Positions 7,457 to 60,837 of a DNA stretch of 64,000 bases are shown in pieces. The translations under genes were made by a program, and so were the position numbers. Each line of letters starts with the position of its first letter. Within the stretch, counting starts at the first letter, position 1. The stretch spans positions 1,488,001 to 1,552,000 of the forward strand of contig NZ_CP020880.1 in assembly GCF_002157855.1 (NCBI RefSeq), written 5' to 3'. The DNA comes from Sutcliffiella horikoshii. Lineage in GTDB: Bacteria > Bacillota > Bacilli > Bacillales > Bacillaceae_I. The notes below the pieces were generated by a model, which saw only the letters and a list, made by a program, of their open reading frames with translations, was not told the DNA's origin and searched no databases.

Positions 7457-7818
7457 AGTCGATTTCCGTTCCAGGCGCTTCGCTTGCCTGCGGGCGGTCC
7501 GTGAGCCTCCTCGGCTGCGCCTGTGGGGTCTCACCTGTCCCTTCCTCCCGCGGGCGTCTGCGCGCCTTCCACTCCAATCAACAAGAAGACTTCATTTATT
7601 TATGGGTTTAGGAAAAGGAATCTAACCGAGGTAGCTGAATAAGCATTAACGCAACATTTAAGCAATTTTCAGCTGTGAATTGAAGCAAATGGCGAAGACT
7701 CCAGCGGGGGAATAACGGTAGGTTGAGACCCCTGAAGCGTTGTGAGGAGGCTCAAGCACCGTCCCGCGGAAAGCGAAGCCATTTGCGGAAAGGAACAGCG
7801 GCGATTCACCAATCAACA
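7457..7818. repeat. Repeat composite: A arm forward, linker, B arm reverse
   Basis: The A arm spans 7457-7582, from GTCGATTTCCGTTCCAGGCG to CTCCAATCAAC. A linker spans 7583-7669 (contains TAGCTGAATAAGCATTAACG). The B arm in reverse spans 7670-7818, from CAGCTGTGAATTG to GGAACAGCGGCG. The B core here is the GACCCCTGAAGCGTTGTG variant. The same three-part structure recurs at 13.5, 43.9 and 60.5 kb. It ends 8 bases before the mtnU stop codon. Confidence 0.9.
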
Positions 7819-7825
7819 AAAGAGA

Positions 7826-8608
7826 TTAATAGTATTGTGGTCTTCGGTCTTCGAAGATTGGGATTCTTTTTCTTACTTCTTCCACCTTCGCCAAATCTAT
7901 TTCAGCTGTAATGATTTCTTCTGTTTCGCCAGCTTCGGCCACAATTTCTCCCCAAGGATCGATAATCATTGAGTGTCCTGCAAAAGCATTCTTCGGATCA
8001 GCACCAGAACGGTTACATGCAATGACATAGCACTGGTTCTCAATGGCCCTCGCAATGAGAAGTGTACGCCAATGATCAACCCTTGCCAAAGGCCACTCTG
8101 CCACAACAAATATCGCTTTTGCATCTTTTGTAGTATGCGCGCGTATCCATTCAGGAAAACGGATATCATAGCAAATAAAGCCAGCACAAGTTTCTCCGTC
8201 AAGTTCAAACATCCCATCTGTCTTTCCGGGCTGAAGGAAATGATGCTCGTCCATTAAGCGGAAAAGATGCAATTTGCTGTATTCCCCAGCAACTTCTCCG
8301 TCTTTATTGACCGTTATCATCGTATTATAAATTCCTTTGTTCGTTTTTTTTGCGACAGAACCGCCCACAATGTGAGTTTTAAGTTCTTTTGCAGCAGATT
8401 TAAGGAATTTGGTAGTGACAAAACCGCCGGAATCTGCAATTTTATCAAGGCGTTCGAGGTCATAACCTGTGGACCAAAGTTCAGGAAGGACAATGATATC
8501 TGGTCGATCCTTACCTGACAATGTCAGTAGTTCACATGCTTTTTCTATATTTGCTTTGGGATCTCCAAAGGCTACATCAAATTGAATACAAGCTATTTTC
8601 CATTTCAT
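7826..8608 (-). CDS. mtnU: Carbon-nitrogen hydrolase (omega-amidase type), methionine salvage
   Basis: Nitrilase-superfamily amidase. The catalytic triad is visible: Glu in LPELWSTGYDL, Lys in YSKLHLF and Cys in FICYDIRFPE. B. subtilis MtnU (YkrU) belongs to the same salvage locus and is thought to deaminate the omega-amide of the keto acid produced by the transaminase MtnE. The frame can be extended to 8656, but ATG at 8608 follows a CGGGGGGA ribosome binding site and gives the family-typical MKWKIACIQFD start, 260 residues. It is divergent from mtnE, with under 100 bp between them that must hold both promoters. Confidence 0.92.
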   Translation of the reverse strand: MKWKIACIQFDVAFGDPKANIEKACELLTLSGKDRPDIIVLPELWSTGYDLERLDKIADSGGFVTTKFLKSAAKELKTHIVGGSVAKKTNKGIYNTMITVNKDGEVAGEYSKLHLFRLMDEHHFLQPGKTDGMFELDGETCAGFICYDIRFPEWIRAHTTKDAKAIFVVAEWPLARVDHWRTLLIARAIENQCYVIACNRSGADPKNAFAGHSMIIDPWGEIVAEAGETEEIITAEIDLAKVEEVRKRIPIFEDRRPQYY

Positions 8609-8706
8609 AATTTTATCCCCCCGTTGAAAAAATACTTTACAAGTTGAATCTAACAATATATGATTTGTGACTAGGATTTCAAGAATTTTTTAAGTAGGTG
8701 AAAAAG

Positions 8707-9879
8707 GTGAAACACTTTCAACAATCTGAATTATTAAATACACTGCCTAAACAGTTCTTTGCTTCATTGGTTGAAAAAGTGGGAAAGGTTGTTGCACAAG
8801 GTCATGATGTTATTAATCTTGGACAAGGAAACCCTGACCAACCGACTCCTGAACATATTGTAAAGTCGTTACAGGAAGCAACCGAAAAACCGAATCATCA
8901 TAAATATTCCCCTTTTCAGGGTCATCATTTTTTTAAAGAAGCGATCGCAACTTTTTATAAACGAGAATATGAAGTGGACATAAATCCAGAAACTGAGGTG
9001 GCCATACTCTTTGGTGGCAAAGCTGGGCTGGTAGAAATCCCCCAATGTTTATTGAATGAAGGGGATACCGTGCTTGTCCCAGACCCGGGTTATCCTGATT
9101 ATTGGTCTGGTGTGGCATTGGCCAGAGCGAAAATGGAATACATGCCTTTAAAAGAAGTATATCATTTTTTACCAAACTATGAAGATATCAATCCGGAAGT
9201 CTTAAAAGCGGCTAAGCTTATGTTCCTCAATTACCCCAATAATCCGACAGGGGCTGTAGCGAATTCTGTATTTTTTAAAGAAACGGTAGACCTTGCAAAT
9301 GAGCACGATATTTGCGTGGTTCATGATTTTGCATATGGTGCAATCGGATTTGATGGAAAAAAACCACTTAGCTTCTTACAAACTCCTGGTGCGAAAGATG
9401 TCGGGATTGAAATCTATACATTGTCGAAAACTTTTAATATGGCCGGATGGCGAGTGGGGTTTGCAGTGGGGAATGAAAGTGTGATCAAAGCGATCAATCT
9501 ATTGCAAGACCATATGTATGTCAGTATTTTTGGCGCGATCCAAGAGGCGGCTGCCACTGCCTTGTTAGATAAACAAACCTGTGTTCAAGAATTGGTAGAT
9601 TTGTATGAGGAGAGACGAAACATCCTTATTCATGGATTACAGGAAATTGGTTGGGAAGTAAAGGCGCCAAAAGGTTCTTTTTTTGCATGGTTAAAAGTTC
9701 CGGAAAGATACACATCTGAGGAGTTTGCAGACAAACTGCTTGAAGAAGCCCATGTGGTGGTGGCACCTGGTATTGGCTTTGGATCCTTTGGGGAAGGTTA
9801 TGTGCGCGTCGGTTTATTAACCAGTACAGAAAGATTACAAGAAGTAGTTCAACGAATCAGAGGGTTAAAGATTTTCTGA
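8707..9879 (+). CDS. mtnE: Aminotransferase, methionine salvage (KMTB to methionine)
   Basis: Fold-type I PLP aminotransferase that transaminates 2-keto-4-methylthiobutyrate to methionine in the last salvage step. Recognisable blocks are INLGQGNPDQPTPEH near residue 40, PDPGYPDYW, LNYPNNPTGAV, and the PLP lysine in YTLSKTFNMAGWRVGF near residue 245. The sequence strongly resembles B. subtilis MtnE as I remember it. GTG at 8707 is preferred over GTG at 8698 because TAGGTG at 8694-8699 sits at correct distance only from the former; this gives 390 residues. It is followed by the S-box leader of mtnW. Confidence 0.95.
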   Translation: MKHFQQSELLNTLPKQFFASLVEKVGKVVAQGHDVINLGQGNPDQPTPEHIVKSLQEATEKPNHHKYSPFQGHHFFKEAIATFYKREYEVDINPETEVAILFGGKAGLVEIPQCLLNEGDTVLVPDPGYPDYWSGVALARAKMEYMPLKEVYHFLPNYEDINPEVLKAAKLMFLNYPNNPTGAVANSVFFKETVDLANEHDICVVHDFAYGAIGFDGKKPLSFLQTPGAKDVGIEIYTLSKTFNMAGWRVGFAVGNESVIKAINLLQDHMYVSIFGAIQEAAATALLDKQTCVQELVDLYEERRNILIHGLQEIGWEVKAPKGSFFAWLKVPERYTSEEFADKLLEEAHVVVAPGIGFGSFGEGYVRVGLLTSTERLQEVVQRIRGLKIF

Positions 9880-9887
9880 ATAGTCTG

Positions 9888-9916
9888 TTGACATAAACTC
9901 AAAATGATGGCATAAT
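9888..9916 (+). promoter_or_regulatory. Sigma-A type promoter of the mtnWXBD transcript
   Basis: TTGACA at 9888-9893 and CATAAT at 9911-9916 with a 17-base spacer, about 50 bases before the S-box P1 stem. Confidence 0.75.
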
Positions 9917-9966
9917 CTCAACTAGAATTTAGTATTTAGATAATTTGAATTTTATATATAATCCAA

Positions 9967-10121
9967 TCTTATCAAGAGCAGGTGGAGGGACTAGCCCGAT
10001 GAAACCCGGCAACCGACTTATTCAGTTAAGCACGGTGCTAAATCTTGCAGCATGAAGCTGATAGATAAGAGGACGTTAGATAGACTAACCTCTTCTTATG
10101 GAAGGGGTTTTTTGTTTTTTT
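9967..10121 (+). ncRNA. SAM-I (S-box) riboswitch with terminator, controls mtnWXBD
   Basis: P1 begins CTTATCAAGAGCAGGTGGAG. The conserved GCCCGATGAAACCCGGCAACC and GGTGCTAAATC blocks follow, and the 3' P1 strand GATAAGAG ends near 10071. A terminator hairpin (AACCTCTTC, loop, GAAGGGGTT with a long T-run) is at 10086-10121, just before the mtnW ribosome binding site. An anti-terminator pairing with the P1 strand is expected. Confidence 0.97.
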
Positions 10122-10146
10122 ATCATCGTTAGAAAGGGTGTACATA

Positions 10147-11391
10147 ATGTCAGAAATTCTAGCAACCTATTTGGTTCATGATCATAACGGGAATCTCGAA
10201 AAAAAAGCGGAAGGGATCGCACTTGGTCTTACCATCGGGTCCTGGACTGAACTTCCGCAGCTTGAACAGGAGCAATTGAGAAAGCATAAAGGCAGAGTCG
10301 TAAGCGTGAAAGAGCTCTCGTCAAATGACAGGGTGAATTCTTATTTAGGGAATACGGTGACACGTGGCATTATCCAAATTGCTTATCCTAGTTTCAATTA
10401 TAGCAATGACTTGCCGGCGATTTTAACCACGGTATTTGGCAAGTTGTCATTAGATGGGGAAATTAAGTTGATTGATCTTGAGTTCAGCAATGACTTGAAG
10501 CTAGCATATCCTGGACCGAAATTCGGAATAGAAGGGCTTCGCTCCATTACCGACGTACATCATAGACCATTTGTGATGAGCATTTTCAAAGGGGTGATCG
10601 GCAGGGACCTTGATTATTTAACGGATCAGTTGAAGGAACAGGCTCTAGGGGGAGTTGATTTCATCAAGGATGATGAAATATTGTTTGAAAACGACCTTAC
10701 CCCTTTTGAAAAAAGGATTACCGAAGGCAAAAGGATTCTAGAGGAAGTGAAGGAAGAGACTGGCCATCGTGCAAGATATGCGGTTAACCTGACAGGCCGT
10801 ACGTTAGAGCTTAAAGATAAAGCAAAAAGAGCGGTAGAATTAGGTGCTGATTTTCTGCTATTCAATGTTTTTGCTTATGGGCTTGATACACTTCAAAGTT
10901 TGGCTGAAGACAAGGAAGTATCCATTCCGATCATGGCGCATCCGGCGGTTAGCGGGGCGGTTACCCCATCAGAATTTTATGGGATTTCCAATGAATTGCT
11001 ATTAGGAAAACTTTTACGCTATGCGGGTGCTGACTTTTCTTTATTCCCATCTCCTTACGGAAGTGTGGCATTGCCGAAGGAACAGGCGCTCGGTATCCGG
11101 GACGCTCTGACAGTAGCAGACAATCAGTTTAAATCGACACTGCCTGTCCCTTCAGCTGGAATCCACCCTGGACTCGTACCCCTCCTTTATCAGGATTTTG
11201 GTAACGATGCGGTCATCAACGCAGGAGGTGGGGTGCACGGACATAAGCTTGGTGGGGCTGCCGGAGCAAAAGCTTTTCGCCAGGCAGTAGATGCGGTAAA
11301 GGCTGGGGAATCATTGACAGCATACGCACAAAAGCATCCGGAGTTAGAGGTGGCCCTCAAGCAGTGGGGAAGTGTGGAGGTTACAACATGA
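10147..11391 (+). CDS. mtnW: 2,3-diketo-5-methylthiopentyl-1-phosphate enolase (RuBisCO-like protein)
   Basis: RuBisCO-like enolase acting on 2,3-diketo-5-methylthiopentyl 1-phosphate; it does not fix carbon. The metal-site block GVDFIKDDE, with the lysine that is carbamylated in this family, lies near residue 175. The phosphate-binding region [19 protein letters not shown] lies near residue 360. ATG at 10147 follows AAAGGGTG, so an upstream GTG is not needed; length 414 is typical. The stop overlaps the mtnX start by 4 bp (ATGA). The preceding riboswitch ties expression to low SAM. Confidence 0.97.
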
Positions 11392-12053
11392 ATGCCAATA
11401 AACAAATGATTTTTTGTGACTTTGATGGAACCATCACCAATAGTGACAATATCATTGCCATTATGAAAAAGTTTGCTCCAAAAGAATGGGACGAAATAAA
11501 AAATCAGGTATTATCTCAAGAAATCTCCATCAAAGAAGGGGTAGGGAAAATGTTTTCCTTGCTTCCTTCTAAGAAAAAGGAAGCAATTACTGAATATATA
11601 CTAGATCACGCTGAGATACGGGAAGGCTTTAATGAGTTTGTGGCTTTTACAAAAGAAGAAGGAATACCCCTTTATATTGTTTCTGGCGGTATTGACTTCT
11701 TTGTGGAACCACTTTTGGAAGGAATGATAGAAGAGGAGAACATCTATTGCAATGGCTCTGATTTTGATGGGGAAACCATAAACATCCTTTGGCCTAATGA
11801 GTGTGATGTGGACTGTGACAACGATTGTGGTTGCTGCAAGCCATCGATTATCAGAAAACTTGTCAAATCTGATACTTATAAAATTGTGATTGGCGATTCC
11901 ATCACAGATTTAGAAGCGGCAAAGCTTGCGGATCAAGTGATAGCGAGGGACTTTCTGATTAAAAAGTGTGAGGAGCACTCCATTGCCTTTTCTCCGTTCG
12001 AAACGTTTTATGATGTGATGGATATCTTGAAAAAACGGAAGGTGACAGCATGA
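11388..12053 (+). CDS. mtnX: 2-hydroxy-3-keto-5-methylthiopentenyl-1-phosphate phosphatase
   Basis: HAD-superfamily phosphatase acting after MtnW. The nucleophile motif DFDGTIT is near residue 10 and the acidic motif [11 protein letters not shown] near residue 165. A cysteine cluster ([14 protein letters not shown]) near residue 145 is typical of Bacillus MtnX as I recall. ATG at 11388 overlaps the mtnW stop, and the gene ends with an ATGA overlap into mtnB, so translation is coupled across the three genes. Length 221 is normal. Confidence 0.95.
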
Positions 12054-12688
12054 GTCATTTTTTAAAGAAATGGACAGAGCTTTCTGAGGTAAAGGAGGAG
12101 TTGGCTTCTCGGGATTGGTTCTTTGGCACCAGTGGAAACCTTTCTATTAAAGTATCAAATACCCCGTTGCAATTCTTGGTTTCCTCAAGCGGTAAGGATA
12201 AAAGAAAGATAACCTCAGAAGATTTTCTGCTTGTGGATGAACTTGGGAACGCGGTCGAAAGCACTGGCTTGAAGCCTTCTGCAGAAACATTGCTACACCT
12301 CGAAGTTTACCGGAAGACGAACGCAGGTTGTTCCTTGCATGTTCATACCGTTGATAACAATGTCATCTCTGAGTTATATGGTGATTACGGTGAGATTAGA
12401 TTTAGAGGACAGGAAATCATCAAAGCTTTTGGTATATGGGAAGAAGATGCAGAAGTAAGCATCCCAATCATAAGAAACCATGCAGACATTCCAGCTTTGG
12501 CAGATGAATTTTCCCAATATATAGATGGAGATGCTGGCGCTGTCCTGATTAGAAATCATGGAATTACCGTTTGGGGAAGGAACGCCTTTGAGGCGAAAAA
12601 ACACCTAGAGGCCTGGGAATTTCTATTCTCCTATCAATTGAAATTATTAAGTGTAAAAAACTTGGTTCAACCAAAAATATCTATTTAA
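12050..12688 (+). CDS. mtnB: Methylthioribulose-1-phosphate dehydratase
   Basis: Class II aldolase-family zinc enzyme that dehydrates methylthioribulose 1-phosphate, the MtnA product, to the diketo compound used by MtnW. Zinc ligands are seen in LHVHTVDNN near residue 100 and in [10 protein letters not shown] near residue 170. SGNLSIK near residue 30 is the phosphate-binding loop. Length 212 is typical. The start overlaps mtnX by 4 bp. After its stop the operon is interrupted by a repeat arm before mtnD. Confidence 0.95.
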
Positions 12689-12722
12689 ATCTTATATAGA
12701 AAAGTTATTCAATAGTTTCCCT

Positions 12723-12853
12723 AGCTGTTGATTGGAGGAACGGGCGAAGACTCCGGCGGGAGGTAGCGGTAGCTTGAGACCCCACAGCGGAGCGAGGAGG
12801 CTCAAGCACACGCCCCGCGTAAAGCGAAGCCCGGTACGGAAATCAACAGCGGT
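12723..12853 (-). repeat. Dispersed GC-rich repeat inside the mtn operon
   Basis: Begins AGCTGTTGATTGGAGG and ends GGAAATCAACAGC, an inverted terminal sequence of about 10 bases. The core GAGACCCCACAGC then GAGGAGGCTC is the reverse of the family core. It combines B-like and A-like ends and looks like a hybrid. It fills most of the space between mtnB and mtnD. Confidence 0.88.
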
Positions 12854-13487: not shown

Positions 13488-13845
13488 GTTGATTTCCGTT
13501 CCAGGTGCTTCGCTTGCCTGCGGGCGGTCCATGAGCTTCGCTACGCTGCGGGGTCTCACCTGTCCCTTCCTCCCGCGGGCGTCTCCGCACCTTCCACTTC
13601 AATCAACAAGGTTATACCAATAACAGAAAGGTTAACAAGAAATATCAAAGCGAGTTAACTGAAAAACTATTACGTTGCTTTTAAGCGGTTTCTAGCTGTG
13701 GATTGGAGCAAATGGCGAAGACTCCTGCGGGGGAGTAGCGGCAATGTTGAGACCCCGCAGGCTTGCCGAGGAGGCTCAAGGCCGCCCCGCCGAAAGCGCA
13801 GCCATTTGCGGAAAGGAACAGCGGTGAATACCCAACCAACTAAAG
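13488..13845. repeat. Repeat composite: A arm forward, linker, B arm reverse
   Basis: A arm 13488-13607, linker 13608-13692 (contains GAGTTAACTGAAAAAC), and B arm reverse from 13693 to about 13845 (CAGGCTTGCCGAGGAGGCTC core variant). Same layout as at 7.5, 43.9 and 60.5 kb. It lies between the mtnD terminator and the flavoprotein gene. Confidence 0.9.
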
Positions 13846-29032: not shown

Positions 29033-29541
29033 AGTGGTTAATCGTCGCTGTTCCTTTCCGCAAATGGCTTCGCTTTCCGCGGGACGGTGCTTGAGCCTCC
29101 TCACATCGCTTTTGGCCACTGAAAAAGTCTTTGATGTTAGATTTTTTTAAGACACCGCTGTTAATTTCCGCAAACGGCTTCGCTTTCCACGGGGCGACCT
29201 TGAGCCTCCTCGGCTACGCCCTGCGGGGTCTCAACATTGTCGCTACTCCCCCGTAGGAGTCTTCGCCTATTGCTCCAATCAACAGCTATAAATTATCCAA
29301 AAGATTGGTTACTAGGTTTTTCAGTGGCCTCCAACGCTTCAGGGGTCTCAACCTACCGTTACTCCCCCGCTGGAGTCTAAGCCATTTGCTCCAACTAAGC
29401 GATGCCTACATGCTTATTCAGTTAACTAGGGTTCGTATTGTTTTCGAACCATTAGATAAATGAAGCCACCTTGTTGATTGTAGTGGAAGGCGCGTAGACG
29501 CCCGCAGGCAAGCGAAGCGCCTGGAACGGAAATCAACTGGA
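29033..29541. repeat. Nested cluster of dispersed repeats (inverted composite, damaged)
   Basis: A forward B arm (29043-29111) is split and resumes at 29332-29396. It then continues into a linker read in reverse (ATGCTTATTCAGTTAACT near 29411-29428) and a reverse A arm at 29466-29537 that lacks about 60 bp of its interior. This is the reverse complement of the A-linker-B composites elsewhere. The split is caused by the element annotated at 29112-29331, which carries another complete B-type arm (29154-29289). Confidence 0.85.
29112..29331. mobile_element. 220-bp inverted-repeat insertion carrying a repeat-family copy
   Basis: The ends are a 13-bp perfect inverted repeat, GGCCACTGAAAAA at 29114-29126 and TTTTTCAGTGGCC at 29317-29329. 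Flanks CATCGCTT (29104-29111) and CAACGCTT (29332-29339) look like an 8-bp target duplication with one mismatch. Removing the element and one flank restores the arm sequence seen at 7.7 and 60.7 kb (CTCACAACGCTTCAGG). No transposase is encoded, so it is MITE-like and must have been mobilised in trans. Confidence 0.8.
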
Positions 29542-29599: not shown

Positions 29600-31735
29600 T
29601 TATTTACCGTTTACGCCGATTTGGTTATCTGTAACATCTACATGGATGGTCGCAAGAGCCTCGCCATCCAATAGCAGGTCTGTAATGGGATCTTCGATAT
29701 GCTCTTGAATAATTCTGCGTAATGGTCTTGCACCAAATGCCGGGTTATAACCAAGCTCAATCAGTTTTTCTTTTGCCGCTTCTGAAATTGTAAGTTCACA
29801 ATCACGTTCTTGGCTCAGCATTACGGATAACTCCCCAATCATAATATCCACAATCGCCAATAAGTGATCTTTTTGTAACTGGGAGAACTCGATGATACTA
29901 TCAAAACGGTTTAAAAATTCAGGTTTGAAGTAATTGGATAAGCTTTCGATAACGGATCCCGTTTGAGGCAAGTTCTGTTTTTCAAAGCCTACGGAGATTT
30001 TCTTATCCATCACACCTGCATTACTTGTCATGATGATAACCGTATCTTTGAAACTTACGGTTCTTCCTTGACTGTCCGTAAGTCTTCCATCTTCCATCAC
30101 TTGCAAGAACAGATGGAGAACGTCCGGATGAGCTTTTTCCATCTCATCCAGCAAAATAATGCTGTAAGGGTTTCTTCTCACTTTTTCTGTTAGTTGTCCC
30201 GCTTCTTCGTGCCCGACATAGCCAGGAGGGGAACCGATTAGCTTGGAAACTGCGTGCTTCTCCATATACTCACTCATATCAAAGCGGATATAAGCATCTT
30301 TCGTTCCAAAGAGCTCTTCAGCCAGTGATTTGGTCAATTCGGTTTTACCTACCCCTGTAGGACCAACAAATAAGAATGCACCGATTGGACGCTCTTTTCT
30401 TTTCAAGCCAGCACGGCTTCTGCGGATCGCTTTTGCAATTTTGTTAACAGCTTCTTCTTGACCAATGACTTTTTGGTTCAGGTTTGTTGCAAGGTTTTTA
30501 AGCTTTGCCTGTTCATCCGCCTGCAGTTTACCAACTGGTATTCCTGACATCTCTTCCATGATGAGTTGAATGTCTTCCAATGTCACCTGACCACGCACAG
30601 CATCCGTTTGATCGTTGGAATTTCTTTTTTCTTCAAGCTCTTCCTCTTCGTCTCTTAATTTGGCAGCAGTTTCGTAATCCTCCTTCGATAATGCGGCCTT
30701 TTTTTCTTCCTCAATTTGAGTCAGACGAGCATCAATCTGCTCCAAGTCAATCGTATTTAGCGTTAGATTTTTTCTAGAACCTGCTTCATCTAAAAGATCG
30801 ATTGCTTTGTCTGGTAGGAAACGATCTTGAATGTAGCGGTGTGATAATTCTACGCATGCCTTAATGGCATCTTCAGAATAAGAAACTTGGTGATATTCCT
30901 CATATTTTGATTGAATACCTTTGATGATTTTTAATGCCTCATCCGTAGAAGGCTCTTTCACAGTTACCGGCTGAAAACGGCGTTCAAGTGCGGCATCTTT
31001 TTCAATTTGACGGTATTCTTTTAAAGTCGTTGCCCCGACCAATTGGAGTTCGCCACGTGCCAATGCAGGTTTTAAAATGTTACCAGCATCCATAGAACCT
31101 TCTGCAGAGCCGGCACCAACTATAAGGTGAAGTTCATCTACAAATAATATGACGTTCTTTCTTTTTTGTAGCTCTGCAATTACTTGTTTAAGACGTTCTT
31201 CAAATTGACCGCGAATACCTGTGTTTGCGACAAGGGAGGCTACATCAAGCAAATAAATTTCCTTGTTTTTTAATTTGGAAGGGACATCGCTTTCAACAAT
31301 TTTCAAAGCTAGTCCTTCCACGATGGCAGTTTTACCTACACCTGGTTCCCCGATCAAAACAGGGTTGTTTTTATTTCTTCTATTTAGAATTTCAATTACA
31401 CGTTTAATTTCTTTATCACGGCCAATGACAGGATCAATAAGCCCTGTTTTGGCAATGTTGGTTATATTTTTACCTAGCTCATCAAGAATGCTTTCACCTT
31501 TTTTGCTTCCTATTGGTGGGTTTTGCGCTTTCCCGTTTATGTGGCCTTCCTCATTAGGGGAGCCATTTCCAAAAGGGAAGTCAGAGAAAAAACCGTTTGG
31601 AGTCGGTGATGTCATTTGTGCTCTTACTTCCTCAAAGCAGGAAGAGCATAAGACAAGTTGTGTCTGCTCGTTATTAGAGCGAAATTTAAATTGAATGGTT
31701 GCGTTATTTACTTCACATTTTTGACATTTCATCAT
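29600..31735 (-). CDS. clpE: ATP-dependent Clp protease ATP-binding subunit ClpE
   Basis: HSP100/Clp unfoldase that feeds ClpP. The N-terminal zinc finger (CQKC and CSSC, residues 4-33) distinguishes ClpE from ClpC. AAA1 has GEPGVGKT near residue 112 and [13 protein letters not shown] coiled coil ([18 protein letters not shown]) lies near residue 360. AAA2 has GPTGVGKT near residue 460 and [11 protein letters not shown]. The sensor-2 region [11 protein letters not shown] closes the protein. Length 711. ATG at 31735 follows GAGGAGGTAGC. Two CtsR-type operators precede it. Product acts on heat-denatured proteins, including CtsR in B. subtilis. Confidence 0.97.
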
Positions 31736-32051: not shown

Positions 32052-32212
32052 AACTCTTATCCAGAGTGACTGAGGGATCAGGCCCGATGAAGTCCGGCAA
32101 CCTTCAAGAATTTAATTTCTTGAGTTGGTGCTAATTCCTGCAGGCGAAGTAGCCTGAGAGATAAGAGGAGGATTTTTAAACCTCTTCTTAGGAAGGGGTT
32201 TTTATTTTGTTG
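32052..32212 (+). ncRNA. SAM-I (S-box) riboswitch with terminator, controls metY-metX-hom
   Basis: P1 5' strand CTCTTATCCAGAG starts at 32054. GGCCCGATGAAGTCCGGCAACC and GGTGCTAATTCC follow, and the 3' P1 strand GATAAGAG ends at 32167. The terminator (AACCTCTTC, short loop, GAAGGGGTT, T-run) is at 32179-32210. Third S-box in the window. Confidence 0.97.
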
Positions 32213-37002: not shown

Positions 37003-37132
37003 CCCTGTTGATTTCCGCAAATGGCTTCGCTTTCCGCGGGGCGACCTTGAGCCTCCTCACTTCGTTGCGGGGTCTCAACAATGTCGCTTCTTCCCCCGCA
37101 GGAGTCTACGCCATTTGCTCCAATCAACAGGG
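37003..37132 (+). repeat. Dispersed GC-rich repeat with 11-bp terminal inverted repeat
   Basis: CCCTGTTGATT at 37003-37013 and AATCAACAGGG at 37122-37132 form perfect ends of a 130-bp copy, the cleanest single arm in the window. The interior is B-type (TTTCCGCGGGGCGACC, GAGCCTCCTC, GCGGGGTCTC, CAGGAGTCTACGCC). It starts 18 bases after the ykvI stop. Confidence 0.92.
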
Positions 37133-41263: not shown

Positions 41264-41370
41264 TCCTTAAAAAATAAGTACTCTAGAAGAAAAAGTAGAA
41301 ACTTGAAAGAAAATATGTTATAGTAACAAAGTTAAATTGAATAAAGTCTTACGCCGATAATGGTGTCAGG

Positions 41371-41450
41371 AGAGGTTCTAGCAAATACCCTCTATAAAAA
41401 ACTAAGGACAGATACCAAACTATATTCCTTAGGATATAGTTTTTTTATTT
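41371..41450 (+). ncRNA. PreQ1-I riboswitch and terminator, controls queCDEF
   Basis: AGAGGTTCTAGC at 41371-41382, loop, CCCTCTATAAAAAACTAAGG ending at 41407 is the near-consensus class I preQ1 aptamer (H-type pseudoknot). A terminator hairpin AACTATAT, short loop, ATATAGTT with seven T follows at about 41419-41447. PreQ1 should shut off queuosine precursor synthesis. Confidence 0.96.
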
Positions 41451-43940: not shown

Positions 43941-44300
43941 CGTTGATTTCCGTTCCAGGCGCTTCGCTTGCCTGCGGGCGGTCCGTGAGCCTCCTCACTC
44001 CGTTGCGGGGTCTCACCTGTCCCTTCCTCCCGCGGGCGTCTGCGCGCCTTCCACTCCAATTAACAAGATATTATCATTCACCGTGGGGTTAATGAAAAAA
44101 AATCCATTCGAGTTCACCGTAATTGCATTAACTTTAAGTTAGTTTTATTTACAGCTGCGGATTGGAGCATATGTCGAAGACTCCTGAGGGAGATAGCGCT
44201 AGGTGGAGACCCCGCAGGCGTGCCGAGGAGGCTCCAGCAGCGCCCCTAGGAAAGCGAAGCCATTTGCGGAAAGGAACAGCGGTGATCAACGGAACAACTA
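43941..44300. repeat. Repeat composite: A arm forward, linker, B arm reverse
   Basis: A arm 43941-44065 (GTTGATTTCCGTTCCAGGCG to CAATTAAC). Linker 44066-44150 (contains CATTCGAGTTCACCG). B arm reverse 44151 to about 44300 (CAGCTGCGGATTGGAGC to GGAACAGCGG). The B arm core is GGTGGAGACCCCGCAGGCG, slightly diverged. Follows the queF terminator by 20 bp. Confidence 0.9.
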
Positions 44301-47106: not shown

Positions 47107-47400
47107 GTCGGGATGAAGACCTCGGTGGTGACAAAAAATTGGAAAGGGAGAGGTCCTCATCGCCGTATGAAGACCTGGGTGACGAGAAAACAGGAGGAGA
47201 GAAGTCCTCATCGCCCGTATGAAGACCCCAGTGACGAAGAATCAGGAGGAGAGAAGTCCTCATCGCCCGTATGAAGACCTAAGTGACGAAAAATCAGGAG
47301 GAGAGAAGTCCTCATTGCTCGTCTGAAGACCTCAGTGACGAGAAATCGGGAAGAGAGAGGTCCTCATCGCCAATATAAAGCCCTTGGTGACAAGGGATTT
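47107..47400. repeat. Tandem repeat, 52-bp unit, about five and a half copies
   Basis: ATGAAGACC-type starts occur at 47113, 47167, 47219, 47271, 47323 and 47375 (spacings 54, 52, 52, 52, 52). Each unit contains GTGACGA, ATCAGGAGGAGAGAAG and TCCTCATCGCC. AGTCCTCAT ... ATGAAGACC around each junction is an inverted repeat, so the array can form a row of hairpins. The unit is not a multiple of three, which argues against coding. Confidence 0.92.
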
Positions 47401-47479
47401 TATTGAAATAGTCAAAGGTGAACGCAAAGGAAAGATCCGGCCAAGGTCAATATTTCAAAGCTGTGCGAAAACCGAGAAA

Positions 47480-47816: not shown

Positions 47817-48001
47817 AAATTGATCGCAGTGGAAGGCACGAAGACTCCTTGAAAATGCTAGCGCATTTTCTTCGTGCGATGAATCGCTGCCGGAGCCTTC
47901 CTTGTCCTATGGGAGGAAGGGACAGGGGAGACCCCTGAAGCGTTGTGAGGAGGCTCCCGGACCGCCCATGGAAAGCGAAGTGCCTGAAACGAAGATCAAC
48001 T
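47817..48001 (-). repeat. Dispersed repeat, A arm reverse, with hairpin insertion and mosaic core
   Basis: Ends AATTGATCGCAGTGGAAGGC and GAAACGAAGATCAACTG. Compared with the 4.2-kb copy it has about 59 extra bases after GAAGACTCCT, including the hairpin GAAAATGCTAGCGCATTTTC (47851-47870). Its core GACCCCTGAAGCGTTGTGAGG is that of the B arms at 7.7 and 60.7 kb. Its end supplies the stop codon of the sigma-factor gene. Confidence 0.87.
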
Positions 48002-49018: not shown

Positions 49019-49024
49019 CAGTAC

Positions 49025-49055
49025 TCAAGAGTCCAAATAGGGCTCTTTTTTTATG
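49025..49055 (+). terminator. Terminator after the YolD-like gene
   Basis: AAGAGTCC, short loop, GGGCTCTTTTTTT. Confidence 0.85.
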
Positions 49056-49162
49056 CCCTTCATTATTGCCTCCATTTAACTACTGGTATATTACATAACT
49101 TTATAGGAAAAATAAAAGGAGAATTGTGACGTCCATTGTTTCCATAGAAAGGGGGGAGTTCA

Positions 49163-55063: not shown

Positions 55064-55067
55064 GTTT

Positions 55068-55494: not shown

Positions 55495-55513
55495 AACAGA
55501 AAGGGGAGTTTTA

Positions 55514-56299
55514 ATGAAAACACATGCTTTTAAAGGGTTGATGAGAAAAGAATGGCTGCTATCTAAAAATACTTTTATACTTCTTATTTGTTTCAAGCTC
55601 TTTATTTGGGCTGTTGTATTGAGTGGGAGTGTGCTCACCAATAACCATGAACTATTATATATTGCGACATCCATGATTATCGGTATCCATGTTATTTATA
55701 TCACGATGATTGTTGGGGCAGGACTGAGCTTGGAAGAAAAGTCGCAAATGTGGCTGCATAGCCCTCGTTCTATGTCCATGATCTTAGGCAGTAAACTTTT
55801 GACAGGGATTTTACTCCAAATCACTAGTTTATGTATGGCGTTTCTGTTGTTAGGGATAACAGTAATTTTCTTTTATCCGGGCGGAACTACGGTAAATCTC
55901 TTAACGGCAGGATCTATTTTTCAAATGAGTGTCCTAATAACAGTTAGTGGATTAGAACTCGCTATGTTCTATACGTTTTATTGGGCAATCTACCATTCGA
56001 TGGGGAGGTTCAATTATTTAGCAAAGTTTAAAGTAGTCCTTTTCACGTTATTTATCATTGTTAGCTTCCTTTTGATTCTATTTATAGAAAAACAGTTGTT
56101 GGGAGGATTGCAATCGGTTTTACCTGTTCCAATTGAAATGACAAAATTCATGAATGTCCATATAGGAGAAGATGGTCTTTGGATCAGTTCTGGCGGAGAA
56201 AAGATTTCATGGGTAGGTTTGCTTTTCTCTACATTGAAAATAACTGGACTCTTTTTCCTATCAAGTTGGCTTTTAAATAAGGCGGTGGAAGTAAAATGA
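55514..56299 (+). CDS. ABC-2 type permease-like membrane protein
   Basis: 261 residues with about six hydrophobic segments and the layout of YtrC/D-type permeases (short N-terminus KGLMRKEWLLSKNTF, paired spans). The loop LEEKSQMWLHSPRSMSMILGSKLL before the third span recurs as VKEQKLKMWLYNPNPARSLLSSKLL in the protein at 57.4 kb, showing they are homologous. ATG at 55514 follows AAAGGGGAG. First gene of a six-gene operon; 4-bp overlap with the GntR regulator. Confidence 0.85.
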   Translation: MKTHAFKGLMRKEWLLSKNTFILLICFKLFIWAVVLSGSVLTNNHELLYIATSMIIGIHVIYITMIVGAGLSLEEKSQMWLHSPRSMSMILGSKLLTGILLQITSLCMAFLLLGITVIFFYPGGTTVNLLTAGSIFQMSVLITVSGLELAMFYTFYWAIYHSMGRFNYLAKFKVVLFTLFIIVSFLLILFIEKQLLGGLQSVLPVPIEMTKFMNVHIGEDGLWISSGGEKISWVGLLFSTLKITGLFFLSSWLLNKAVEVK

Positions 56300-56673
56300 C
56301 AGCAAAATACGATGCTGATAAACCAATTTATCTGCAGATCATTGATCGTATAAGTAAAGAAATCGTTCGAGGTGTGTTAAAGCCTGGAGATAAACTTCCT
56401 TCCGTTAGGGAAATGGCCATTCAGTCAGGTGTAAATCCAAATACCATTCAACGAACATACAGTGAAATGGAGAGGATGGAAATCGTGGAAACCAAAAGAG
56501 GGCAAGGGACATTTGTTACGGAAAATGAGGGAATGCTTTTGCATTTGAAAAAAGCCATGGAAACTAAAGTTGTTGAAAGCTTTGTCCAGAGTATGAGGGA
56601 AATCGGTGCATCAGAAAGGGAAATTGTTGAAAGTGTGGAAAGATTTTTGGAGGAGGGGGAGAATCAGAAATGA
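56296..56673 (+). CDS. GntR family regulator, YtrA subfamily
   Basis: 125 residues. Winged helix at about 10-78 (PIYLQIIDRISKEIVRGVLKPGDKLPSVREMA, NPNTIQRTYSEMERMEIVETKRGQGTFV). The short C-terminus of about 45 residues only dimerises and lacks a ligand domain, as in YtrA. Likely represses its own operon through the dyad at 55467-55494. YtrA-type operons respond to cell-wall antibiotics in B. subtilis; the inducer here is unknown. Overlaps the genes on both sides by 4 bp. Confidence 0.93.
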   Translation: MTAKYDADKPIYLQIIDRISKEIVRGVLKPGDKLPSVREMAIQSGVNPNTIQRTYSEMERMEIVETKRGQGTFVTENEGMLLHLKKAMETKVVESFVQSMREIGASEREIVESVERFLEEGENQK

Positions 56674-57362
56674 TCAAATTCGAACAGGTTAGTAAAAAAT
56701 ATGGCAAAGATATTGCGGTGAAGGATGGGAATCTGTCTTTTGAAAAAGGAAAAATCATTGGTTTGCTTGGTCCAAACGGCAGCGGAAAGTCTACCAGTCT
56801 GAAGATGATTGCCGGTTTGGTAAGACCTGATAAAGGTAAGGTGACGGTGGATGGGGAAATAGCCAGCCGCAAGATTGCAAGAAAGGTAGCCTATATGACG
56901 GAACTTGACGTATTTTATGATGCTTTCTCAGTAGAAAACATGGTCAAATTCTACGCCTCCCAATTCGGGGATTTCGACAAAGAGAAGGCGGAAGAGCTTT
57001 TGGTGTTCATGAAACTTGAGCCATCCAAAAAAATAAAAGAGTTGTCCAAAGGTAACAGAGGCAGATTGAAGCTTGTTCTGGCATTGGCCAGGCAAGCGGA
57101 TTACATTCTGTTGGATGAGCCATTTTCAGGATTGGATCCCATGGTGAGAGATTCGATTGTAAAAGGGCTCCTAACCTTCCTCGATTTCGGTAATCAGACG
57201 ATTATTATTGCCACCCATGAAATTGATGAAATTGAATCACTGCTCGATGAAGTGGTGTTAATAAAAAATGGAAACTTTATGGCCCATCAAAACGTAGAAC
57301 ATATTAGGGAATCGGATGGACTGTCGGTTAAAGACTGGATGATTGCAAATTTACAGGAGTAA
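56670..57362 (+). CDS. ABC transporter ATP-binding protein (YtrB-like)
   Basis: 230 residues. Walker A GPNGSGKS near residue 36, degenerate signature LSKGNRGR near residue 131, Walker B YILLDEPFSGLD and H-loop THEIDEI. The LSKGN-type signature is typical of YtrB-like exporters linked to GntR/YtrA regulators. ATG at 56670 overlaps the regulator stop. It probably partners the permeases at 55.5 and 57.4 kb. Confidence 0.94.
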   Translation: MIKFEQVSKKYGKDIAVKDGNLSFEKGKIIGLLGPNGSGKSTSLKMIAGLVRPDKGKVTVDGEIASRKIARKVAYMTELDVFYDAFSVENMVKFYASQFGDFDKEKAEELLVFMKLEPSKKIKELSKGNRGRLKLVLALARQADYILLDEPFSGLDPMVRDSIVKGLLTFLDFGNQTIIIATHEIDEIESLLDEVVLIKNGNFMAHQNVEHIRESDGLSVKDWMIANLQE

Positions 57363-57375
57363 GGGGGGAGAAAGA

Positions 57376-58152
57376 ATGGGTTATTACACGGGGCTGTTAT
57401 TAAAAGATTGGAAGCTTTCGATGAAGGCGCAACTGCAGAATTATCTTTTTATTCTAGCGCTATGGATGTTAGGTGTAGGGTTATCGTTAAGTATGGATGA
57501 GCCGGAAGTTTCTATAGCTATTGGGCTGACTTTAATAAGCATCCATATTTTCTACATGGGAACCGATATGGTTATGAATCTTGTAAAAGAGCAAAAATTA
57601 AAGATGTGGTTATATAATCCAAATCCCGCTCGATCTCTACTTTCTAGTAAATTGCTAATCTCAATGTTCAACTGTTTGCTGTCCATTACTTTTGCCATCC
57701 TTCTGTATGCCATTTCCTGTTTCATCAGTGGCCAGCCCTTTCTTCAAGGCAAGGAAATTATTGAGGGCTTTGCATTAATAGGTACGATTATAGGTGTAGG
57801 TATGTATCTTGCGATTTGGGCCATTTTTTTCTGGTCTCAAATTGCTGTTGCAAAAGGGAAGCGCTTTGAATATGTGCGCATTGCTTTTAGCGGGATAATT
57901 GCGTATTTTATTTTTGTGATACATGAGGGGTTCATGCTTAGTACCTTATATGATCGACTCAAGGATGTTGGCAGTTTTCCGTCCGTATCATTAGGTACTC
58001 TAGTCACAAATGAAACGGAGAATGGGTATCAGGAAATTTCGTTGGGGGTAAGTTTGTCAGAGTTTTCCTTTGGACTGTTTACGGTTTTTCTAGCGGTAAG
58101 TGTTTTGGTTTTTTTCCTCTCAGTAAAAAATGTGAAGAAAATAGAAGTATAA
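57376..58152 (+). CDS. ABC-2 type permease-like membrane protein
   Basis: 258 residues, about six hydrophobic segments. Homologous to the first gene of the operon (shared pre-helix block KMWLYNPNPARSLLSSKLL). ATG at 57376 follows GGGGGGAGAAAG, 13 bases after the ATPase stop; the frame upstream to 57343 overlaps that gene and is not used. Likely forms a heterodimeric channel with its paralog. Confidence 0.86.
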   Translation: MGYYTGLLLKDWKLSMKAQLQNYLFILALWMLGVGLSLSMDEPEVSIAIGLTLISIHIFYMGTDMVMNLVKEQKLKMWLYNPNPARSLLSSKLLISMFNCLLSITFAILLYAISCFISGQPFLQGKEIIEGFALIGTIIGVGMYLAIWAIFFWSQIAVAKGKRFEYVRIAFSGIIAYFIFVIHEGFMLSTLYDRLKDVGSFPSVSLGTLVTNETENGYQEISLGVSLSEFSFGLFTVFLAVSVLVFFLSVKNVKKIEV

Positions 58153-58167
58153 AAGGAGCTATGTAAC

Positions 58168-59085
58168 ATGAGTGATGTGGCAGTAAAGCTTACAAATGTT
58201 TGTAAAGACATAGGTACCAAGGAAATCATTAAAGATGTATCTTTTGAAGTGTATAAAGGAGAAGTGTTTGGCTTTCTTGGACCAAATGGAGCCGGAAAAA
58301 CGACAACCATTCGAATGATGGTTGGATTGATGAGTATCACTTCAGGTGATATACACATCGACGGAGCAAGCATCAAGACCGATTATGAAAAGGCGGTCCG
58401 CCAAGTGGGGGCAATCGTTGAGAATCCAGAAATGTATAAATTTCTAACGGGATATCAGAATTTGAAACAATATGCCAGAATGATGCCCGGGATCACAGCA
58501 GAACGACTGGATGAAGTAATAGAATTGGTTGGATTGACTGGCCGGATCAAGGAAAAAGTGAAGACATATTCTTTGGGGATGAGGCAGCGTTTGGGAATAG
58601 CACAGGCCTTACTACATAAACCAAAAGTATTAATACTTGACGAACCAACAAACGGACTGGATCCTGCAGGTATCCGGGAAATAAGAGACTATTTACGAAG
58701 TCTTGCCAGAGAAGAAGGAATGGCGATTGTTGTTTCAAGCCATCTATTATCCGAAATGGAATTGATGTGTGATAGAGTCGGTATCATCCAAAAGGGTGAG
58801 TTAATCGATATTCAAAGTATCAGGGACTTCATTAACGATGGCGGAAAAACCTTGTATCAGCTGGAATGTGAACCGGTGGAAGAGGCGATGGCATTGATGC
58901 GTGAGATGGATATGACTCATAATCTTGCAGAGGGTAAATTGCAGGCGGAGATAGATCGTGCAGCTGTTCCATTGTTTATCAAAAGTTTAGTAGAAAAAGA
59001 GATTGCTGTATTTGAAGTGAAGGAAGTAACGAAAACCCTTGAAGACAAATTCTTAGAAAAAACGTCACAGGAGCGAGGTGTCTAA
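58168..59085 (+). CDS. ABC transporter ATP-binding protein (BcrA-like)
   Basis: 305 residues. Walker A GPNGAGKT near residue 38, signature YSLGMRQR near residue 133, Walker B VLILDEPTNGLD and H-loop SSHLLSEME. The C-terminal 90 residues have no ATPase motif, as in bacitracin/lantibiotic-immunity ATPases. ATG at 58168 follows AAAGGAGC. Its stop overlaps the next ATG (TAATG). It forms a second exporter with the following permease. Confidence 0.94.
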   Translation: MSDVAVKLTNVCKDIGTKEIIKDVSFEVYKGEVFGFLGPNGAGKTTTIRMMVGLMSITSGDIHIDGASIKTDYEKAVRQVGAIVENPEMYKFLTGYQNLKQYARMMPGITAERLDEVIELVGLTGRIKEKVKTYSLGMRQRLGIAQALLHKPKVLILDEPTNGLDPAGIREIRDYLRSLAREEGMAIVVSSHLLSEMELMCDRVGIIQKGELIDIQSIRDFINDGGKTLYQLECEPVEEAMALMREMDMTHNLAEGKLQAEIDRAAVPLFIKSLVEKEIAVFEVKEVTKTLEDKFLEKTSQERGV

Positions 59086-60053
59086 TGATGAAAAATTTAA
59101 TTCAAAATGAACTAATTAAATGGTTTAGAAGGCCAAGCTTTTATGTGATGAGTGCGATATTGGTATTATTGTCAGCCGTTGGAGTCATTTTTACCATCAT
59201 GATGGGCTCGATGCTTGACGATGCAAGAAGTGAAAGTGGTGCCAATGGCCAAGAGCTTAGCTGGGAGGAATCCTTAGAGCAGGAAAATGAATACCTGGAA
59301 ATGACGATTGAAGAGTCAGAGGAAGGGGATAGAAGCAACCTAGAGCGACAGTTGGCAATAAATGAGCATCGCTTGGAAAATGATATGGAACCTACAACTG
59401 GCAACTCTGTGTGGACATATATGGATGAAAATTTTGGATTGACAAGCCTGGTTACACTATTCGTTGTCATCATAGCTGCAGGTATGATAGCAAGTGAATT
59501 TACTTGGGGGACTATCAAACTCTTAATGATCAGACCGATAAGCAGAAGTAAGATCTTGCTGGCTAAATACATCAGTGTCCTTGTGTTCATAGTCATTTTT
59601 TATACAATTCTATTTGTAAGTACTTTTGTAACCGGTGCTATTGCTTTTGGTTTTGATAGTACGCCTTACCTTTTGTATGCTGGTGGTGAAGTGCAAGAGG
59701 TTCATCCATTTTTATACTTGATCTTGAAAATGGCATTGAGCAGTTTAGGAGTAATTATGTTCGCTACCATTGCTTTCATGATATCGAGTGTGTTCCGGAA
59801 TAATTCGCTTGCAATTGGGATTTCACTATTTCTTTTATTTACAGGAACGCAGATTACAACGCTTGTTGCCATGAAGTTTGAATGGGCCAAGTATTCTCCG
59901 TTTGCCAACATTCATTTTGAATCATTGCTTGAAGGAATGCAAATTGTCCCAGGAGTTAGTTTTGGCTTCTCTACTGTCATGTTTTTAATCTACTTTGTGT
60001 TGCTGCATGTAGTAAGTTTCTGGACATTTGTGAAACGAGATATTGCTGCTTAA
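59085..60053 (+). CDS. ABC-2 type permease (BcrB-like)
   Basis: 322 residues. First span FYVMSAILVLLSAVGVIF, then an external loop of about 75 residues rich in Glu (residues 45-120). Five more spans follow, including TLFVVIIAAGMIASEFTWGT before the conserved WGTIKLLMIRPISR. This is the BcrB/EcsB-like layout of peptide-antibiotic resistance exporters. Tandem ATGs at 59085 and 59088. Last gene of the operon. The acidic loop could sense a cationic peptide, but this is a guess. Confidence 0.9.
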   Translation: MMKNLIQNELIKWFRRPSFYVMSAILVLLSAVGVIFTIMMGSMLDDARSESGANGQELSWEESLEQENEYLEMTIEESEEGDRSNLERQLAINEHRLENDMEPTTGNSVWTYMDENFGLTSLVTLFVVIIAAGMIASEFTWGTIKLLMIRPISRSKILLAKYISVLVFIVIFYTILFVSTFVTGAIAFGFDSTPYLLYAGGEVQEVHPFLYLILKMALSSLGVIMFATIAFMISSVFRNNSLAIGISLFLLFTGTQITTLVAMKFEWAKYSPFANIHFESLLEGMQIVPGVSFGFSTVMFLIYFVLLHVVSFWTFVKRDIAA

Positions 60054-60196
60054 CTTTTTTAGCGGAATGAACTGTTAGATATAGTGTAAGGTAGAGTTTT
60101 AATGGTGTATTCAAGATGTGTATGTGGTATTACAATGATAAGCCCGTTTGCCTTGCCTGTAATTTCGACTAATATTTAACCAAGTAGGTGATGTTG

Positions 60197-60451
60197 ATGG
60201 AACTGGTGAATATTTCGTATATGAAAAAAGGGCAGATACAAGGGTTTTTTGATAAGTTTCCGCATTCCAAGGTACTCTTTTCCCCCATCCGTAAGTATTA
60301 TTTTGTTTCTTATGTGTATTGGGATGAACGGGACCCGATAGTGCTGCAGGAAGATTTGGAGAAAATGGAGCTTCTTTTTAACAGCTATATGGGGAGAGAA
60401 GCGTTTTATCGGAGAAGGAAAAGAGCGGATACTGGAGTGGGAGGTGCCTGA
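60197..60451 (+). CDS. Hypothetical 84-residue protein
   Basis: MELVNISYMKKGQIQGFFDKF at the start, then SPIRKYYFVSYVYWDERDPIVLQED and an arginine-rich tail (REAFYRRRKRADTGVGGA). Soluble, mixed fold. ATG at 60197 lies 6 bases after TAGGTG; GTG 60188 and ATG 60191 are alternatives. I do not recognise it. It ends in its own terminator, whose first arm overlaps the last codons. Confidence 0.65.
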   Translation: MELVNISYMKKGQIQGFFDKFPHSKVLFSPIRKYYFVSYVYWDERDPIVLQEDLEKMELLFNSYMGREAFYRRRKRADTGVGGA

Positions 60452-60476
60452 GGTTTAGGGCGCCTCTTTTTTTGAA
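60440..60476 (+). terminator. Terminator overlapping the end of the 84-residue gene
   Basis: GGAGGTGCC, loop, GGCGCCTCTTTTTTT. The stop codon lies in the hairpin loop. Confidence 0.85.
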
Positions 60477-60488
60477 TGTATAAAGTAC

Positions 60489-60837
60489 GGTTGATTTCCG
60501 TTCCAGGCGCTTCGCTTGCCTGCGGGCGGTCCATGAGCCTCCTAGTCTGCGCCTGTGGGGTCTCACCTGTCCCTTCCTCCCGCGGGCGTCTGCGCGCCTT
60601 CCACTACAATCAACAAGGTGACCTCATTCATCAAAGGGGTTATGAAACAGCACATAACCGAGTTAACTGAATCAAGCATTAACGTTACATTTACGCAATT
60701 TCCAGCTGTGGATTGGAGCAAATGGCGTAGACTCCAGCGGGGGAGTATAGGTAGATTGAGACCCCTGAAGCGTTGTGAGGAGGCTCAAGCACCGTCCCGC
60801 GGAAAGCGAAGTCATTTGCGGAAAGGAACAGCGGCTA
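60489..60837. repeat. Repeat composite: A arm forward, linker, B arm reverse
   Basis: A arm 60489-60614. Linker 60615-60702 (GAGTTAACTGAATCAAGCAT), the closest match to the 7.6-kb linker. B arm reverse 60703-60837 with the GACCCCTGAAGCGTTGTG core. The copy most similar to the 7.5-kb composite. Confidence 0.9.

What the first reader, a model, noticed from the sequence alone, without database searches (positions are those of the whole stretch)
7457..60837. A composite repeat of about 355 bp (A arm, conserved linker, inverted B arm) recurs at five sites
Composites at 7457-7818, 13488-13845, 43941-44300 and 60489-60837 share arm order, orientation and a linker of 85-95 bp with a common core (GAGTTAACTGAA, AAGCATTAACG). 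An inverted, damaged fifth lies at 29.04-29.54 kb. A and B arms share a core in opposite orientation, so a transcript of the unit could fold into one long stem-loop. Conservation of the non-arm linker argues that the whole composite, not each arm, moves or is selected.
Basis: partly seen in the sequence, partly recalled or inferred. Interest (0 to 1): 0.8.

Follow-up and report, generated by a model that had tools for sequence, protein, structure and literature searches.

The report
Terminator-hugging composite repeat in Sutcliffiella
A repeated piece of non-coding DNA made of two hairpins sits just behind the stop signals of dozens of genes in one group of bacteria, nearly always pointing the way the chromosome is copied, which suggests that it spreads as one unit by a route linked to DNA copying.

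Summary
Four intact composites and one broken one lie in the window; 67 A-linker-B pairs were found in the genome among the best 150 candidates scored per arm. Arms outside these pairs are commoner still (82 of 149 A hits, 83 of 150 B hits). Three features were unexpected. (1) Composites sit right behind a host intrinsic terminator (46 of 67 with a strict finder; 59 of 346 ordinary gene ends), and 65 of 67 run with replication, against 268 of 348 genes and 46 of 66 terminator-bearing genes sampled. (2) They are rare in the origin-proximal third (5 of 67); single arms are not. (3) At 19 sites shared with a sister species the arms are no more alike than arms at different sites, while flanks and tips are, so arms seem to be exchanged between loci. 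Filled and empty sites show insertion behind the T-tract; the best-preserved copy ends in its own terminator. The proposed long stem-loop has no covariation support; two separate hairpins do. Best reading: a non-autonomous mobile element inserted in a replication-linked way at terminators, mobiliser unknown; REPIN-like, a new variant of a known kind.

The parts
7407..7434 (+). host intrinsic terminator of the cspA-like gene, directly upstream of composite 1
   Evidence: read; same terminator in relatives without an intact element
7440..7457 (+). composite 1, AT-rich left tip (AGGAGAATATACAATACA; consensus AAGAAAGTATAWAATnCn)
   Evidence: column counts over 62 copies
7458..7582 (+). composite 1, A arm (hairpin)
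   Evidence: separate hairpin supported by covariation
7583..7670 (+). composite 1, linker (88 nt)
7671..7800 (+). composite 1, B arm (hairpin)
7801..7825 (+). composite 1, AT-rich right tail (element's own terminator not recognisable in this copy)
13488..13607 (+). composite 2, A arm
13608..13693 (+). composite 2, linker (86 nt)
13694..13823 (+). composite 2, B arm; orthologous site empty in G015, G013, G002, G005, G011
29046..29537 (-). composite 5, broken: A arm with inner deletion, linker, B arm split by a nested B-type element at 29156-29287; behind the minus-strand ORF 29600-31735
43942..44064 (+). composite 3, A arm
44065..44152 (+). composite 3, linker (88 nt)
44153..44281 (+). composite 3, B arm; orthologous site empty in G013, G002, G014
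60490..60614 (+). composite 4, A arm
60615..60703 (+). composite 4, linker (89 nt)
60704..60833 (+). composite 4, B arm
49019..49162 (+). empty site here; the orthologous site in G002 holds a complete composite with its own 3' terminator (site X)
2638..2962 (+). no composite here; the orthologous site in G012 holds one (site Y)
12723..12851 (+). single B arm
37003..37132 (-). single B arm
47907..48000 (-). partial single A arm
3622..3756 (-). single B arm
4197..4325 (-). single A arm, 440 nt from the B arm above with other sequence between

Best explanation
A non-autonomous mobile element of the Sutcliffiella group, about 415 bp in its best-preserved copy: left tip, hairpin A, linker, hairpin B, AT-rich tail and its own intrinsic terminator. 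SHOWN: it is gained as one block directly behind the T-tract of a host intrinsic terminator, mostly in the gene's direction, without a detectable target duplication; nearly all copies run with replication; many sites are shared between species; copies lose their middle by inner deletions; arms at shared sites are no more alike than arms at other sites. INFERRED: insertion happens on single-stranded DNA of the lagging-strand template, where the terminator hairpin of a co-directional gene is exposed; an enzyme supplied in trans recognises the two separate hairpins and the terminator/T-tract; the loss of site-specific likeness in the arms is ectopic gene conversion. The mobilising enzyme is not identified.
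For: Filled/empty sites c2, c3, X and Y, read on a tree of seven proteins from 16 genomes: c3 fits one gain in the clade of own, G001, G007, G012, G008, G009, G004; Y a gain in G012; X was seen only in G002 of 12 genomes shown. Context: upstream ORF in the same direction in 60 of 67, stop codon 50-92 bp before the A arm in 44 of those 60; strict terminator within 110 nt upstream in 46 of 67 (T-tract 14-40 nt before A), opposite strand of the same stretch 9 of 67, ordinary gene ends 59 of 346. Polarity: 65 of 67; baselines 268 of 348 genes and 46 of 66 terminator-bearing genes; P = 5.5e-6 and 1.4e-8, Fisher against the latter 1.4e-5; dnaA at the contig start. Replication in sisters, with the switch point chosen afterwards: 38 of 40 scored copies in G001, 18 of 20 hits spanning both arms in G002 (counted). 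Duplicated flanks: 0 of 67 above the 99th percentile of re-paired flanks. Separate hairpins covary. At 19 orthologous sites, true against re-paired identity: A 0.929 v 0.926 (P 0.19), B 0.896 v 0.893 (P 0.25), linker 0.710 v 0.668 (P 0.0002), tips 0.699 v 0.599 and 0.742 v 0.653, upstream flank 0.782 v 0.513 (0 of 5000 each); loop variants agree in 2 of 19 (0.9 expected) and 2 of 19 (2.2 expected). IS608 and ISDra2 insert into the lagging-strand template (PMC6006769, abstract and passages).
Against: No transposase is linked: 20 Y1_Tnp loci in 16 genomes carry 0 A or B arms within about 1.5 kb. No phage match; plasmid matches cover at most 34% of the query. No fresh pair: the two most alike of 62 own composites are 93.5% identical. 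The own terminator is recognisable by motif in only 20 of 62 copies, and a strict finder sees a downstream terminator in 10 of 67. At c2, G003 holds a shortened composite that does have a terminator although its neighbours on the tree G013 and G015 are empty, which points to a second insertion at one site or to loss. Depletion near the origin is not predicted. The terminator-bearing baseline is 66 genes and a simple finder. Models were built from copies like composite 1 and only 150 of 1461 and 150 of 1409 candidates were scored, so arms are undercounted.
Confidence: 0.5

Rival explanations
1. A domesticated non-coding RNA or 3' UTR module: copies are kept because the two hairpins and second terminator behind leading-strand genes do something for the host (backstop termination, RNA stability, protein binding), with spread long finished.
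For: At 19 orthologous sites arms differ by 7-10% while linker, tips and near flanks differ by 22-30%, so arms are held fairly constant; of nine unpaired positions CTGTCCCTT in the A arm eight are invariant in 30 of 30 copies, as expected of a binding site; a TATAAT-like box with at most one mismatch lies 8-10 nt before the A arm in 30 of 62; the site X copy ends in an intrinsic terminator.
Against: Presence is patchy, with empty sites or remnants in many relatives; no -35 box in the column counts; no expression data; no Rfam match in the window or at three composite loci tested with a lax threshold.
Confidence: 0.2
2. An ordinary terminal-inverted-repeat MITE moved by a DDE transposase at random; copies behind terminators of leading-strand genes are simply the tolerated ones.
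For: Single arms look MITE-like (imperfect GTTGATT...AATCAAC ends) and matches are found in other genera of the order (29 of 45 genomes outside the genus); a B-type element with CACTGAAAAA/TTTTTCAGTG ends is nested in composite 5.
Against: No duplicated flanks at 67 composites (a duplication of T's alone could not be seen); strand choice relative to the upstream gene (60 of 67); leading bias beyond that of genes and of terminator-bearing genes; junction at the T-tract.
Confidence: 0.13
3. A retroelement-like unit: its RNA, starting near the A arm and ending at its own terminator, is copied into terminator sites by a reverse transcriptase in trans.
For: Own terminator in the complete copy and a TATAAT-like tip; five reverse transcriptase genes within group II introns of two types in the genome, all co-directional with replication.
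Against: For the four introns whose edges could be read, the 5' flank is not a terminator; no intron RNA match at composites.
Confidence: 0.07
4. Repeated independent insertion at the same hot-spot terminators, rather than gene conversion, explains why orthologous copies differ.
For: T-tract-to-A distance is no more alike at shared sites than at re-paired ones (4.6 v 4.7 nt, P 0.43, n 17); arms uncorrelated; G003 holds a differently ended composite at site c2 although G013 and G015 are empty.
Against: Tips and, weakly, linkers keep site-specific likeness; at c2 own, G001, G007, G008 share a right end without the element's terminator.
Confidence: 0.1

Closest known systems
REPIN / BIME with RAYT (TnpA-REP) transposases
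   Same: Two related palindromes in inverse order with a spacer, many extragenic arms, single arms as possible remnants, two possible folds (long hairpin or two hairpins), as discussed for REPINs (PMC3116915, passages).
   Different: Arms of about 125-130 nt instead of 20-40; no GTAG tag at an arm end by inspection; no arm near any Y1 gene found; seat behind terminators; replication polarity; own terminator.
IS200/IS605-type single-strand transposition (IS608, ISDra2)
   Same: Hairpins near both ends, no target duplication seen, replication-linked strand preference (PMC6006769, abstract and passages).
   Different: No transposase gene inside or linked; target is a terminator T-tract rather than a short fixed sequence (the latter recalled); arms much larger (recalled).
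BOX / RUP repeats of Streptococcus pneumoniae and bcr1 of the Bacillus cereus group
   Same: Chromosomal, intergenic, structured repeats, composite or mobile in character (search listings; passages; details recalled).
   Different: No sequence comparison was made here; I do not recall that they sit behind terminators or follow replication direction.
Group IIC introns
   Same: Insertion behind intrinsic terminators and link to the replication fork (both recalled).
   Different: No intron RNA domains at composites; the group II introns of this genome use other sites.

Membership tests
REPIN/BIME (RAYT-associated) | two inverted palindromic units with a spacer, many extragenic copies | tested here: met
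REPIN/BIME (RAYT-associated) | units of 20-40 bp ending in GTAG (or CGTC) | tested here: not met
   arms of 125-130 nt, no such tag at the ends (alignments; definition from PMC3733652 passages)
REPIN/BIME (RAYT-associated) | copies next to a RAYT gene | tested here: not met
   20 Y1_Tnp loci from 16 genomes, 0 arms within about 1.5 kb
IS200/IS605-mobilised element | no target-site duplication | tested here: met
   0 of 67 composites with duplicated flanks; sites X and Y; a duplication of T's alone could not be seen
IS200/IS605-mobilised element | strand bias relative to replication | tested here: met
   65 of 67; 38 of 40 in G001 with a switch point chosen afterwards
IS200/IS605-mobilised element | cognate Y1 transposase | tested here: inconclusive
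   one unlinked Y1 gene (open frame 233 aa) in the own genome
Group II intron derivative | intron RNA match | tested here: not met
   no match at composites in the window or in L001, L007, L088; real introns do match
DDE MITE | terminal inverted repeats plus target-site duplication | tested here: not met
   no duplicated flanks at 67 composites
Known Rfam structured RNA | match at gathering score | tested here: not met
   (whole window)
bcr1 (B. cereus group) | sequence similarity | not tested
   bcr1 sequence not at hand

The most novel reading that the evidence does not exclude
A terminator-to-terminator mobile non-coding unit: it lands behind a host terminator on the lagging-strand template, brings its own terminator so that transcription still stops, and is thereby harmless enough to reach dozens of copies; its hairpins are kept uniform across the chromosome by continuous exchange between loci. 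It would be a class of mobile element defined by transcription-termination hairpins as target and as own end, moved by a still unknown enzyme.
Probability: 0.35. Interest if true: 0.75.

Novelty: new variant of a known kind. Interest (0 to 1): 0.6.

Why it matters
Few bacterial repeats show at once where they insert, which way they face and how they evolve afterwards. Here terminator targeting, near-complete co-orientation with replication, depletion near the origin and loss of site identity in the arms can all be counted in one genus with filled and empty sites. That makes replication-coupled insertion of non-autonomous repeats testable in a Gram-positive host, and offers a natural system for ectopic exchange between dispersed short repeats.

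Tried and rejected
Link to a RAYT: no arms near any of 20 Y1 loci. Group II intron target: the four introns whose edges could be read (of five) are not behind terminators. Target duplication: none at composites; one single A element (L199, of 20 tested) and A-bearing elements in G003 and G006 do have the terminator hairpin on both sides, so that class is different. Long joined stem: favoured by energy, not by covariation. Promoter: TATAAT-like tip but no -35 seen. Named RNA families: none. Literature: searches listed no description of this repeat; most subscription papers are not held, and stem-loop families of Bacillus halodurans in PMC2267715 (passages) were not compared by sequence, so it may still be in print. 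PMC4666352 (abstract) had no bearing. A paper on orientation of transposable elements cited in PMC6006769 could not be opened.

Rows dropped: five of the 67 pairs (L062, L087, L096, L097, L098) were left out of the column counts, and five of 67 gave no usable pieces (62 left); all 67 are in the orientation and position counts. The pair at 1492197 (linker 440 nt) and the broken composite 5, both against replication, are not in the 67; with both the count is 65 of 69. Only 20 of 73 single A and 20 of 81 single B arms were fetched for context; hits of 50 bits or less (8 of 82 A) were left out there. In one search only 10 or 11 candidates per genome (9 in one) were scored and the match list was cut.

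Full report
WHAT IS THERE. The window lies at 1,488,001-1,552,000 of a 4.28-Mb contig. Contigs of sister genomes in the same genus match by length records titled Sutcliffiella horikoshii, S. deserti, Bacillus horikoshii FJAT-14233 and Bacillus sp. RO1/RO2. Each intact one has an A arm of about 120-125 nt, a linker of 86-89 nt and a B arm of about 130 nt.

GENOME-WIDE. Covariance models of the two arms gave 149 A and 150 B hits in the own genome, with 150 of 1461 and 150 of 1409 candidates scored. 68 A-B pairs lie on one strand within 1 kb, 67 within 300 nt; 53 of the 67 have a linker of 80-94 nt, and 82 A hits and 83 B hits are outside them, so arms alone are the commoner state. Of 61 genomes searched with composite 1, 45 matched, 16 of 16 in the genus and 29 of 45 outside it; outside the genus the best E was 5.9e-25, as for single arms inside it, though those coordinates were not listed. 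An exact 27-nt pattern across the linker/B junction gave 51 stretches in records titled S. horikoshii, S. deserti, B. horikoshii and Bacillus sp. RO1, RO2 and CHD6a, the last not placed by me. Phages: no match; plasmids: 13 records, at most 34% of the query.

WHERE IT SITS. The ORF upstream runs in the same direction in 60 of 67 copies, its stop codon 50-92 bp before the A arm in 44 of the 60, median 68; the ORF downstream may face either way. The stretch before the A arm is usually a host terminator that differs from copy to copy, then the tip AAGAAAGTATAWAATnCn. A strict finder hit 46 of 67 copies, T-tract 14-40 nt before the A arm, against 9 of 67 on the opposite strand and 59 of 346 ordinary gene ends; downstream on the same strand it hit 10 of 67.

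WHICH WAY IT FACES. dnaA starts at the contig start, so replication runs outward from coordinate 0. Of the 67, those below 2.01 Mb are on the plus strand except one divergent copy (435,657), and those above 2.22 Mb on the minus strand except one (2,361,303): 65 of 67. In a sample of 20 x 20 kb, 268 of 348 genes and 46 of 66 terminator-bearing genes are co-directional with replication. Single A arms: 37 of 73; single B arms: 57 of 81. With the switch point chosen afterwards, 38 of 40 scored copies in G001 and 18 of 20 in G002 fit one switch of strand. Composite 5, against replication, follows a minus-strand ORF.

POSITION ON THE CHROMOSOME. By distance from the origin in thirds, composites number 5, 31, 31 (P = 6e-7 for the first); single A 23, 29, 21; single B 24, 26, 31; G001 2, 21, 17 if its contig also starts at the origin. 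I have no good explanation for this depletion.

FILLED AND EMPTY SITES. A tree of seven proteins groups own, G001, G007, G012, G008, G009 and G004, with G013 and G015 next, then G003, then G002. Site c2 is filled in own, G001, G007 and G009, partly in G008 and G012, cut by a contig end in G004, and empty in G015, G013, G002, G005 and G011; G003 holds a shortened composite with its own terminator there, and G006 another element. Site c3 is filled or decayed in own, G001, G004, G008, G009 and G012 and empty in G013, G002 and G014. Site X is filled only in G002 of 12 genomes shown; that copy is 414 bp from the host T-tract to the end of its own T-tract and ends in GTACCGGGCGGTTTCTGCCCGGTTTTT. Site Y holds a composite only in G012 of 15 shown. 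So insertion happened more than once in the history of the genus. At c1 several relatives keep only the left end of A next to the right end of B, or an A arm without its top: the palindromes go by inner deletion. No duplicated flank was found at 67 composites.

STRUCTURE. Two separate hairpins: 98.1% of cells paired, 12 pairs changed on both sides against 3.5 in shuffles (0 of 500), slid controls 0-4. One joined stem: 97.7% paired, 1 doubly changed pair against 1.1 (408 of 500), slid controls 0-3. The energy fold of single copies nevertheless favours the joined form. Of nine unpaired A-arm positions CTGTCCCTT (columns 109-117) eight are invariant in 30 of 30 copies.

HOW IT EVOLVES. Of 30 G001 composites fetched, 19 lie at sites orthologous to own composites by both flanks. 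True pairs are clearly more alike than re-paired ones in flanks and tips, weakly in the linker, and not detectably in the arms; loop variants agree as by chance. I read this as ectopic gene conversion centred on the arms; repeated insertion at the same terminators is the main alternative. Arms also differ less (7-10%) than linker and tips (26-30%) at the same sites, which conversion alone does not fully explain; some constraint on the arms is likely. The two most alike of 62 own composites are 93.5% identical, so no very recent copy was seen.

MECHANISM. Shown: unit insertion, seat, direction, decay, loss of site identity in the arms. Inferred: lagging-strand single-stranded target, enzyme in trans, gene conversion. 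IS608 and ISDra2 use the lagging-strand template (PMC6006769, abstract and passages), and REPINs have been proposed to be moved by a RAYT that sees the REP doublet (PMC3116915, passages). No RAYT link was found here, so the resemblance is in how it may work, not in family membership.

VERDICT. It is best called a REPIN-like composite repeat with terminator targeting; function beyond spread is unproven.

Noticed in passing
L105 and L121 (G003), L110 (G006): A-arm elements with ends such as CAGACTGTTGACAAAG / CTTTGTCTACACACTGA sit in terminators; at L105 and L110 the terminator hairpin is present on both sides.
   Followed up: partly
L199 (own genome, 989363 +): Single A element with a perfect 28-bp copy of a terminator hairpin on each side.
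   Followed up: partly
window 29156-29287; L067, L070: A B-type element with CACTGAAAAA/TTTTTCAGTG ends is nested in the tip of the B arm of composite 5, and its right end is seen in two other copies, as if hairpin tips were its target.
   Followed up: no
own genome 346914, 565948, 3245402, 3259945, 3848762: Five group II introns of two types, all co-directional with replication.
   Followed up: partly
own genome, single A arms with score 50-125: 27 of 36 of these lower-scoring single A arms face against replication, the reverse of composites.
   Followed up: no
window 47111-47422: Tandem array with a 52-nt spacing, five overlapping 104-nt copies.
   Followed up: no
window 6715-6874, 9966-10071, 32054-32167, 41366-41411: Three SAM riboswitches and one PreQ1 riboswitch.
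   Followed up: no
L031 (own genome 4006055 -): Lone Y1 transposase gene beside a GGGGTCTGACCCC-type hairpin unrelated to this repeat.
   Followed up: partly
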